From positions 1 to 35,098 of the forward strand of contig NZ_CADEGK010000021.1 of the NCBI RefSeq assembly GCF_902826855.1: a stretch of DNA of 35,098 bases. The letters are read 5' to 3'. This DNA is from an uncultured Phenylobacterium sp. GTDB taxonomy: Bacteria > Pseudomonadota > Alphaproteobacteria > Caulobacterales > Caulobacteraceae. Below are positions 13,386 to 15,067 of this stretch, one piece after another; the first letter of the stretch is position 1, and each line of letters opens with the position of its first letter. Made by a program: the position numbers and the translations under genes. Below the pieces are notes generated by a model, which worked only from the letters and a program-made list of their open reading frames with translations, had not been told where the DNA came from and ran no database searches.

Positions 13386-13556
13386 CTAGAAGCCCAGGCC
13401 GCCGGTGGCCGCGCCGGCCATGAGGGCCAGGCATACGAGGGTGATGGGGGCGGAGGCGTCGAGGACGCGGATCAAGCGGGCGATCATGAGGCGGAACTCC
13501 TTCCGGCGAGCGGGACGGGTCGGGATGAGGTGTCGTGGGGTCGCTTTCGGCTTCAT
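13386..13556 (-). CDS. 56-residue single-pass membrane protein, unknown function
   Basis: A small gene. The protein starts MKPKATPRH, has a very basic N-terminal third (RPARRKEFR) and one hydrophobic helix (APITLVCLALMAGAATGGLGF) that runs to the end. ATG 13556 has AAGGAG five bases upstream. A second in-frame ATG at 13487 also has a strong AAGGAG, nine bases upstream, and would give a 33-residue form that is nearly only the helix. Codons end in G or C at almost every position, as in real genes here. It follows the hydrolase gene on the same strand after 45 bp. Family not recognised. Confidence 0.6.
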   Translation of the reverse strand: MKPKATPRHLIPTRPARRKEFRLMIARLIRVLDASAPITLVCLALMAGAATGGLGF

Positions 13557-13601: not shown

Positions 13602-14471
13602 CTACGGCCGAACCAGAAACTCGAGGATCCGCGCGTTGACGGCCTCAGGCTGCGCCACGGCGGCGATGTGATCGGCGCCGGGGACGATGGCGGTCTCGAG
13701 GGCGGGCATCCGCCGCTTGGCCAGCGCCAGGGTCGCCTGCGGGTCGTAGAGCCGCTCCTGGTCGCCGATCAGCAGCAGCGTCGGCGCGCGGATCGCGCGC
13801 AGCTCCGGCGTGCCGAGCACGGCGGCCGAGATGGTCTGCAGTCGCGGCCGCTCGGCCATCATCACGCCCATCAGGGCGGCCCATTGTGCATCGCGCGGGG
13901 CCATCCGCAGGTCCGCCATGCTGGCCTCGCGCTGGTCGCCCATGAGCCGCCGCAACCGGCGGCGCAGCGGCAGGCTCAGCATGGTGAGCATGAACTTCAG
14001 CGACAGGCCGACGAACGTGCCCGCCGGGCTGATGAGCACGACGCGATCCACCCGCTCGGGGGTCAGCGACGCTTGGCTGAGCGCCAGGAAGCCGCCGAAG
14101 GAACAGCCGACGATGGATGCGCGCTGCACGCCCAGGCCGTCGAGGACATCCGTCAGCCAGCCGGCGAAGGCGCGCCGGCCCCGGATGCGCGCACCGCTGG
14201 CGACGCTCTTGCCCCCCTGCCCGATCACGTCGACCGCATAGGTCCGGAAATGCCCGCTGAGCGCCGCGACGTTGGAACGCCAGACCGTGGCGCTGGCCAC
14301 CAGGCTGTGCAGCAGCACCAACGGCGGCGCATCGAGGGGACCGCTGGCGATCACATGAGTGGTCCCGAGCCGTGTCGGGAGCTGCAGGGTGTCGAACGGG
14401 ACCGGCCAGGCAGCGAGCACGGCATCGTAGGCGGCGATGTAGCGGCGTTGGCTCTCTTCAGTTCTGAACAT
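13602..14471 (-). CDS. Alpha/beta hydrolase
   Basis: A 289-residue protein of the alpha/beta hydrolase fold. The nucleophile elbow is GCSFGG (Ser near residue 124), the acid is probably the Asp in the IGDQERLYD segment, and the catalytic histidine is in GADHIA near the C-terminus; an early PLVLLHSL stretch forms the oxyanion region. The closest recalled relatives are esterases or C-C bond hydrolases of unknown substrate. ATG 14471 is preferred over upstream frames because GGAGG lies six bases before it. Upstream, on the same strand, are a promoter candidate and two terminator-like hairpins that could limit its expression. Confidence 0.88.
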   Translation of the reverse strand: MFRTEESQRRYIAAYDAVLAAWPVPFDTLQLPTRLGTTHVIASGPLDAPPLVLLHSLVASATVWRSNVAALSGHFRTYAVDVIGQGGKSVASGARIRGRRAFAGWLTDVLDGLGVQRASIVGCSFGGFLALSQASLTPERVDRVVLISPAGTFVGLSLKFMLTMLSLPLRRRLRRLMGDQREASMADLRMAPRDAQWAALMGVMMAERPRLQTISAAVLGTPELRAIRAPTLLLIGDQERLYDPQATLALAKRRMPALETAIVPGADHIAAVAQPEAVNARILEFLVRP

Positions 14472-14623
14472 GCAGACCCTCCAGCTGCGTCCGCGCATGG
14501 CGGACTCCCGGGGAAGCGCGGCGGGCCAACAGGATCGCGCACCCGCAGGTGGACCTGCGGGCGGCCGGCGCGAGGGCCGGGGATGGCTGGTCTGTCGAAT
14601 GGCCCTGCGACCAACAGGGCATG

Positions 14624-14652
14624 AAAAACCCGCCGGGATCGCTCCCAACGGG
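14624..14652 (-). terminator. Intrinsic terminator on the minus strand
   Basis: Read on the minus strand, CCCGTTGGGA (14652-14643) and TCCCGGCGGG (14638-14629) form a continuous ten-pair stem with two U-G pairs and a GCGA tetraloop, followed at once by TTTTT (14628-14624). No minus-strand gene precedes it: it lies 153 bp upstream of the hydrolase ATG, so it must end a short RNA or act as an attenuator. Confidence 0.7.
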
Positions 14653-14716
14653 CGGTCGTATACAGACGCGAAAAAGACAGCGCAACAACTAAATTGTGCG
14701 CGGGCCTAGTTCGCCA
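14624..14716 (-). ncRNA. Candidate small RNA or attenuated leader, about 90 nt
   Basis: The segment lies between a promoter candidate (14723-14750) and an intrinsic terminator (14652-14624), both on the minus strand. It would also contain a 5' hairpin at 14701-14680 (GCGCA-CAA pairing with TTG-T-TGCGC), itself followed by CTTTTT. Two stable stems joined by a U-rich single strand resemble bacterial trans-acting RNAs. The other reading is an attenuated leader for the hydrolase gene 153 bp downstream. No known RNA family is recognised. Confidence 0.4.
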
Positions 14717-14722
14717 AGTGCG

Positions 14723-14750
14723 AATGTAAGCCTTCCTCTGACCATGTCAA
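14723..14750 (-). promoter_or_regulatory. Housekeeping-type promoter on the minus strand
   Basis: TTGACA (14750-14745, perfect -35) and TACATT (14728-14723, four of six) are 16 bases apart. The start would be near 14716. An inverted repeat TTCGC-N5-GCGAA at 14710-14724 covers the start point and may be an operator. Confidence 0.5.
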
Positions 14751-14782
14751 GCCCGCATCACTTTGAGGTTCCGATTCCCAAT

Positions 14783-14798
14783 TCAAACGCTTGTTTGA
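14783..14798. promoter_or_regulatory. TetR-like operator upstream of the FMN riboswitch
   Basis: TCAAAC (14783-14788) and GTTTGA (14793-14798) are perfect inverted repeats around GCTT, a shape common for TetR-family repressors. On the plus strand TTGTTT (14791-14796) and TATCCT (14815-14820), 18 bases apart, could be the -35 and -10 of the ribH transcript, so the operator would overlap the -35 box. No TetR gene is in the window. Confidence 0.45.
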
Positions 14799-14850
14799 CG
14801 CCGCGGAATTGCCCTATCCTTCCCTCGCCGTCGGATGTTCCGGCGGCCTA

Positions 14851-15021
14851 CGTTCTCAGGGCGGGGTGTAATTCCCCACCGGCGGTAATGCCCTTCGAAG
14901 CTTCGGCCAAGACGGGACGAGCCCGCGGGCGCCTTCCGGCCATTCCAGAAATGGGGCCGGCAGGGACGAGCAGACCCGGTTCGATCCCGGGGCCGACGGT
15001 TAGAGTCCGGTTATGAGAACG
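14851..15021 (+). ncRNA. FMN riboswitch (RFN element)
   Basis: The conserved core is plain: the 5' strand CGTTCTCA (14851-14858) pairs with TGAGAACG (15014-15021) to close P1. The hallmark stretch AGGGCGGGGTGTAATTCC follows, then CCACCGGCGGTAATG, and near the end CCGACGGTTAGAGTCC. It lies 87 bases upstream of ribH, the lumazine synthase gene, which is a classic target. Binding of FMN normally switches the downstream riboflavin gene off. Confidence 0.96.
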
Positions 15022-15067
15022 GTCGAATGCGCGAAGGCGGGCAACCGTCGCTGCGCGTCCGGCCTGC

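What the first reader, a model, noticed from the sequence alone, without database searches (positions are those of the whole stretch)
14624..14750. Possible new small RNA, or attenuated leader, on the minus strand upstream of the hydrolase
A perfect TTGACA -35 with TACATT 16 bases on, an inverted repeat over the predicted start, a bulged 5' hairpin followed by CTTTTT, and then a ten-pair GCGA-loop intrinsic terminator with five thymines all lie on the same strand within 127 bp and no gene lies between. The order promoter, hairpin, terminator predicts a discrete RNA of about 90 nt, or premature termination ahead of the hydrolase gene at 14471.
Basis: partly seen in the sequence, partly recalled or inferred. 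Interest (0 to 1): 0.72.

Follow-up and report, generated by a model that had tools for sequence, protein, structure and literature searches.

The report
Likely new small RNA gene, Phenylobacterium
Between two genes of a bacterium of the genus Phenylobacterium lies what looks like a small stand-alone RNA gene of about 90 letters with its own start and stop signals; one other species keeps it in the same place, but it is an ordinary kind of gene whose task is not yet known and whose RNA has not been seen.

Summary
On the minus strand TTGACA-N16-TACATT (14750-14723) is followed by a structured stretch and an 11-pair intrinsic terminator (14653-14628, T-run to 14624). No shuffle of the intergenic region gave such a pair (0 of 3000). 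One other genome of the 101 held in the genus (G032, a Phenylobacterium MAG) carries the element at the same place, divergent from the FMN-riboswitch/ribH2 gene, with the same 16-nt promoter spacing. Similarity spans the predicted start to the terminator (body 66%, terminator 97%) and drops to near shuffled level on both sides. No hydrolase follows in G032, and no close relative of it was found in the other 100 genomes, so attenuation of the hydrolase is not the shared function; a stand-alone sRNA gene fits best. The large 5' hairpin is not kept as a whole (14 of 21 body pairs, no compensatory change), nor is the inverted repeat over the start. A 56-aa hydrophobic ORF follows in both species, so a leader of that ORF is the main rival. 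No Rfam match in the window segment. Sequence evidence only.

The parts
14723..14750 (-). sigma-70/RpoD-type promoter, TTGACA-N16-TACATT
   Evidence: 10 of 12 consensus matches; G032 has TTGACT-N16-TAACTT, 8 of 12, at nearly the same distance from the riboswitch
14713..14716 (-). predicted transcription start (range)
   Evidence: RpoD motif 5' end lies -34 to -37 from mapped starts in Caulobacter (PMC4287350, passage); similarity to G032 starts at 14716
14624..14716 (-). predicted RNA of about 90 nt
   Evidence: 78% identity over 94 nt with G032, E 1.2e-11; CM R1 112 and 113 bits for the two, next best 39.8; no ATG in either species' RNA
14680..14701 (-). central hairpin of the RNA body
   Evidence: kept in the two-sequence consensus fold; 3 of its 8 pairs change on one side, none on both
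14624..14653 (-). intrinsic terminator, 11-pair stem, GCGA loop, five T
   Evidence: 31 of 32 bases identical in G032
14541..14562 (-). second hairpin beyond the terminator; one G-C to A-U double change between the two species
   Evidence: letters; 73% against shuffled 50+-6
13605..14471 (-). alpha/beta hydrolase gene (possible earlier start 14502), not conserved at the locus
   Evidence: Abhydrolase_1 E 2.9e-22; match in 1 of 101 genomes, its own
13386..13556 (-). 56-aa small hydrophobic ORF, also downstream of the RNA in G032
   Evidence: 48% identity; E 3.3e-8; AAGGAGACTG just ahead of ATG in both
14848..15024 (+). FMN riboswitch of the divergent ribH2 gene (anchor of the synteny)
   Evidence: RF00050, 82.5 bits

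Best explanation
A stand-alone intergenic small RNA gene of about 88-93 nt. RNA polymerase with the housekeeping sigma factor starts at about 14716-14713 on the minus strand and stops at the intrinsic terminator ending at 14624. The terminator fold is more stable than the best fold without it, so termination is probably constitutive. The RNA most likely acts in trans by base pairing through its conserved blocks (GAAYTAGGC, TTGTTGCG, the U-rich stretch after it). Shown: the signals, their order, their conservation at the same place in a second species, and no ATG or steady reading frame. Inferred: transcription, RNA size, trans action, targets.
For: Promoter-terminator pair beyond shuffles; same element at 116/216 against 118/215 nt outward of the riboswitch in G032, same promoter spacing; identity by block: spacer 48% (shuffled 44+-6), body 66% (46+-4), terminator 97% (47+-5), after the terminator 52% (45+-3); single-base gaps in the body alignment and no ATG argue against coding; no hydrolase in G032's locus and no close relative in the genus.
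Against: No transcript data. Two species only. The body fold differs between them (14 of 21 body pairs of either fold fit the other, no compensatory change) and the body alone folds only moderately better than shuffles (z -2.44 and -1.90). The conserved blocks are mostly paired in the window's predicted fold, which does not favour trans pairing. 72 of 74 riboswitch-flanking regions lack the element, among them G051, G002 and G012, each closer on a ribH2 tree to one of the pair than the pair are to each other. The promoter of G032 scores 8 of 12, no better than another site in the same stretch, and -35 to -10 overall is 52% identical against 44+-5 shuffled. Pairing with neighbouring genes not above shuffles.
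Confidence: 0.64

Rival explanations
1. An attenuated or leaky leader: the promoter drives the downstream genes (56-aa ORF in both species, hydrolase in the window) and the terminator limits read-through.
For: Same strand; the small ORF follows in both; beyond the RNA promoter no site of 9 of 12 or better was found down to the small ORF in either species (two 8-of-12 sites in the window, at 14648 over the terminator and at 14378 inside the hydrolase, none in G032 past the terminator); a second hairpin beyond the terminator is kept with one double change. In G032 the terminator's 3' arm can pair with the RNA's 5' end (8 pairs, -15.3 kcal/mol, 5% of shuffles as good).
Against: That pairing is not shared: the window's best is 6 pairs at another place, 32% of shuffles as good; the terminator fold is favoured by about 10 (window) and 6 (G032) kcal/mol over the best fold without it; no ATG for a leader peptide ahead of the terminator; sequence between terminator and ORF is near shuffled identity apart from the second hairpin; terminator-to-ORF distance is about 1.07 kb against 0.38 kb.
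Confidence: 0.24
2. A promoter and terminator left from a cassette gained or lost beside ribH2, now without function beyond insulating the divergent ribH2 promoter.
For: Patchy presence (2 of 74 regions); what follows the riboswitch differs among the 13 regions printed; the hydrolase has no close relative in the genus.
Against: Body and terminator stay conserved while the adjacent spacers have lost similarity.
Confidence: 0.09
3. An ortholog of GsrN, the general-stress sRNA of Caulobacteraceae.
For: Similar size; GsrN orthologs are predicted in Phenylobacterium (PMC5869019, passages).
Against: RpoD-type promoter; no GGAAC-N15-18-CGTT, the EcfG-type site as I recall it, anywhere in the window; present in 2 of 101 genus genomes. 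I had no GsrN sequence to compare.
Confidence: 0.01

Closest known systems
Intergenic small RNAs of Caulobacter crescentus (133 ncRNAs, 27 of them known from tiling arrays; PMC4117421, passages)
   Same: Intergenic, short, own start
   Different: No relative of this RNA in the family genomes searched with the models (299, 390) beyond the two species; expression not shown here
GsrN (PMC5869019, passages)
   Same: About 100 nt, ends in an intrinsic terminator hairpin
   Different: [quoted passage not shown] here an RpoD-type promoter and two species
Attenuated leaders such as that of ilvBN (described in PMC4117421, passage)
   Same: Promoter, hairpins and terminator ahead of same-strand genes
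   Different: No leader-peptide ATG and no shared anti-terminator found

Membership tests
Stand-alone intergenic bacterial sRNA | Own promoter and own intrinsic terminator a short way apart with no gene between | tested here: met
   (signals by consensus only)
Stand-alone intergenic bacterial sRNA | Conserved as a unit and non-coding in relatives | tested here: met
   In one other species only; single-base gaps; no ATG
Stand-alone intergenic bacterial sRNA | A discrete transcript is made | not testable with these tools
   no RNA data
Stand-alone intergenic bacterial sRNA | Conserved secondary structure with covariation | tested here: inconclusive
   Two sequences; 1 double change among 23 consensus pairs; outer 5' stems not kept
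Transcription attenuator of the hydrolase | Regulated gene conserved with the leader | tested here: not met
   No hydrolase in G032's locus; 1 of 101 genomes
Transcription attenuator of any downstream gene | Mutually exclusive terminator and anti-terminator | tested here: inconclusive
   terminator arms against body, fraction of shuffles as good 0.95 and 0.32 (window), 0.59 and 0.05 (G032); the G032 pairing has no counterpart at the same place in the window
GsrN | EcfG-type promoter | tested here: not met
   0 matches of the recalled site in the window
GsrN | Sequence similarity to GsrN | not tested
   GsrN sequence not at hand
Any Rfam family | Score at the family's gathering cut-off | tested here: not met
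   the G032 stretch gives only two sub-threshold hits (15.8 bits against 49.5, 14.6 against 50)

The most novel reading that the evidence does not exclude
The RNA and the 56-aa hydrophobic ORF form a two-part cassette, RNA regulator plus small membrane protein, gained and lost together beside ribH2. The ORF follows the RNA in both species that have it; tblastn of both ORFs against the 74 outward regions found it in no other (best other E 0.077; regions about 700 nt long). The ORF may be a divergent member of an unnamed family of 30-37-aa proteins that stands in tandem in other genomes of the genus (weak matches, E 0.01 and above).
Probability: 0.12. Interest if true: 0.5.

Novelty: new member of a known kind. 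Interest (0 to 1): 0.35.

Why it matters
If transcribed, it is an undescribed RNA gene of narrow range, gained or lost within one small clade of Phenylobacterium, with exact coordinates for a test. Among the papers listed by my searches (10 of 1,287, 7 of 7) none looked like a study of Phenylobacterium sRNAs, judged by title and abstract start. It does not by itself open a long-standing question.

Tried and rejected
Attenuator of the hydrolase: rejected as the shared function. Anti-terminator: nothing shared between the species. Pairing of the RNA body with ribH2 leader, hydrolase start, small ORF or G032's short ORF: none better than mononucleotide shuffles (0.22-0.88 of shuffles as good). 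Wider homologs: the CM of the whole RNA gave hits of 25-34 bits in 9 further genus genomes at E <= 0.1 and hits in 86 of 299 family genomes, the two included, at E <= 0.01 (others up to 39.8 bits); in the eight such alignments printed the strong part is the terminator, so I dropped them. A CM without the terminator left the two species plus four weak hits (18-24 bits) in 390 family genomes: L230 and L231 share an open frame that reads as one coding gene, L228 and L229 show no terminator in the 70 nt printed beyond the match. The spirochaete hit of the pattern scan has no T-run after the stem-like part and is taken as chance. BLAST at E <= 1 listed matches in 86 of 101 genus genomes, but apart from G032 those listed span at most 38 nt. 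My alignment of nine of them put minus-strand matches in the wrong way round and I draw nothing from it except the G032 row. Plasmid search: the 20 rows listed of 80 cover query 89-261, the riboswitch side, not the RNA. A first protein alignment used a wrong frame for the G032 ORF and was replaced.

Full report
OBSERVATION. The minus strand of 14750-14624 reads as described: TTGACA, 16 nt, TACATT; an inverted repeat TTCGC-ACTTG-GCGAA at 14724-14710; a structured stretch with CTTTTT; and an intrinsic terminator with stem 14653-14628 and T-run to 14624. The stem has 11 pairs counting G-U. Single elements of this grade are expected by chance in 14 kb (1 promoter against 0.8 expected; 5 terminators against 5.7), but the pair is exceptional: it is the only one in the window on either strand, and none arose in 3000 shuffles of the intergenic region or 40 of the window. 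Fold of the whole RNA z -3.56; of the body without the terminator z -2.44, and z -1.90 for the G032 body.

SETTING. The plus strand beside it carries an FMN riboswitch (RF00050, 82.5 bits) and ribH2, lumazine synthase (PF00885, E 2.3e-37). The minus strand downstream carries an alpha/beta hydrolase (13605-14471, PF00561) and then a 56-aa ORF (13386-13556). The window is contig 21 of a genome (G000) whose genus has 101 held genomes, its own included. Contig C35 of G032 in that genus has 33,555 bases, as has the public record of a Phenylobacterium sp. MAG that the pattern scan found, so I take the genus to be Phenylobacterium.

CONSERVATION. BLAST of the segment against 100 genomes found one strong match outside its own, in G032: E 1.7e-11, 78%, query 45 to 138, i.e. 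window 14716 to 14623, the predicted start and the terminator end (again among the 101 genus genomes, E 1.2e-11). I took the regions outward of all 74 FMN riboswitches (the window's and 73 others). By the patterns of my script a promoter and a terminator were found in 2 of 74, the window and G032, at 118 and 215 against 116 and 216 nt. G032 has TTGACT-N16-TAACTT, 8 of 12. By block, identity between the two is 84% from riboswitch to a palindrome, 48% in the spacer (shuffled 44+-6), 52% from -35 to -10 (44+-5), 66% in the RNA body (46+-4), 97% in the terminator (47+-5), 52% after it (45+-3), 73% in a second hairpin (50+-6). That is the pattern of a discrete unit. Body gaps are single bases and neither RNA has an ATG.

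RANGE. A covariance model of the two gave 113 and 112 bits for them, at most 33.8 elsewhere in 101 genus genomes and at most 39.8 elsewhere in 299 family genomes; in the eight such alignments printed the strong part is the terminator. Without the terminator, 2 of 101 genus genomes and 6 of 390 family genomes matched at E <= 0.1, four of the six at 18-24 bits, by inspection chance. These searches used the stricter filters and a two-sequence model, so distant relatives could be missed. An exact pattern scan of the genome collection found G032's record and one spirochaete stretch, the latter without a terminator; the window's own record may be left out there. On a ribH2 DNA tree of the 30 best matches of 74, window and G032 fall in one set of five with G051, G002 and G012 (support 86, not starred); the window pairs with G051 and G032 with G002 (98 each), and G051, G002 and G012 lack the element at the locus. 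On that tree it was lost three times or gained twice.

STRUCTURE. The terminator stem is identical. The central hairpin is kept, 3 of its 8 pairs changing on one side; over all 23 consensus pairs one double change occurs, in the weak outer stem. The inverted repeat over the start is absent in G032. I build on neither.

MECHANISM. Attenuation ahead of the hydrolase fails as the shared function because no hydrolase follows in G032 and no close relative was found in the other 100 genomes. Attenuation ahead of the small ORF remains possible: the ORF follows in both species, no site of 9 of 12 or better lies between, and G032's terminator 3' arm can pair with the RNA's 5' end about as well as 5% of shuffles. 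Against it, the window shows no such pairing at that place, the terminator fold is favoured by about 10 and 6 kcal/mol, and distances to the ORF differ nearly threefold. A stand-alone sRNA needs only what is seen. In Caulobacter 93% of RpoD motifs lie -34 to -37 from the mapped start (PMC4287350, passage), which puts the start here at 14716-14713. Trans action through the conserved blocks is inference, and these blocks are mostly paired in the predicted fold; pairing with neighbours was tested and not found.

PRIOR WORK. Rfam has no match in 14520-14800 at E <= 5. Papers: search listings (one search listed none) and passages of PMC4117421, PMC4287350 and PMC5869019 were seen; none of what I saw names this RNA. 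Supplementary ncRNA lists were not available, so a Caulobacter ncRNA at a like position is not excluded.

VERDICT. A probable new small RNA gene of narrow range: a new member of a known kind. The most novel reading still open is a joint cassette with the small hydrophobic ORF. On checking, I lowered the sRNA odds slightly (0.66 to 0.64) and raised the leader's (0.22 to 0.24), because of the weak G032 promoter, the moderate body fold and the G032 pairing.

Noticed in passing
window 13386-13556 (-); L170 1528-1626, L172 1232-1333 and 1537-1638, L174 1513-1614, L176 1516-1617: A family of 30-37-aa hydrophobic proteins ending in TAGLG-x; in three of the four loci printed they stand in tandem, with a hairpin ahead of the ORF and a GC-rich terminator-like hairpin behind. 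Six proteins, the window's 56-aa ORF included, gave no Pfam or NCBIfam match at cut-off. The window's ORF ends in ATGGLGF and matches them weakly.
   Followed up: partly
window 14541-14562 (-): Second hairpin beyond the terminator, kept in G032 with a G-C to A-U double change and no T-run after it.
   Followed up: partly
window 14783-14796: Palindrome-like AAACAAGYGTTTGA (minus strand) upstream of the ribH2 riboswitch, exact in 29 of the 74 outward regions; possibly part of the ribH2 promoter.
   Followed up: partly
window 14471-14502 (-): Hydrolase start is ambiguous: ATG at 14502 and ATG at 14471 are in one frame, each with a purine-rich stretch ahead. In G032 an ATGCGC after the second hairpin opens an 18-aa ORF instead.
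   Followed up: no
L197-L201, L204, L206, L207: Terminators with the core GGAGCGATCC recur in family genomes: 8 of the 8 alignments printed, chosen by the model and so biased. In the window's own genome the pattern I tried matched only this terminator.
   Followed up: partly
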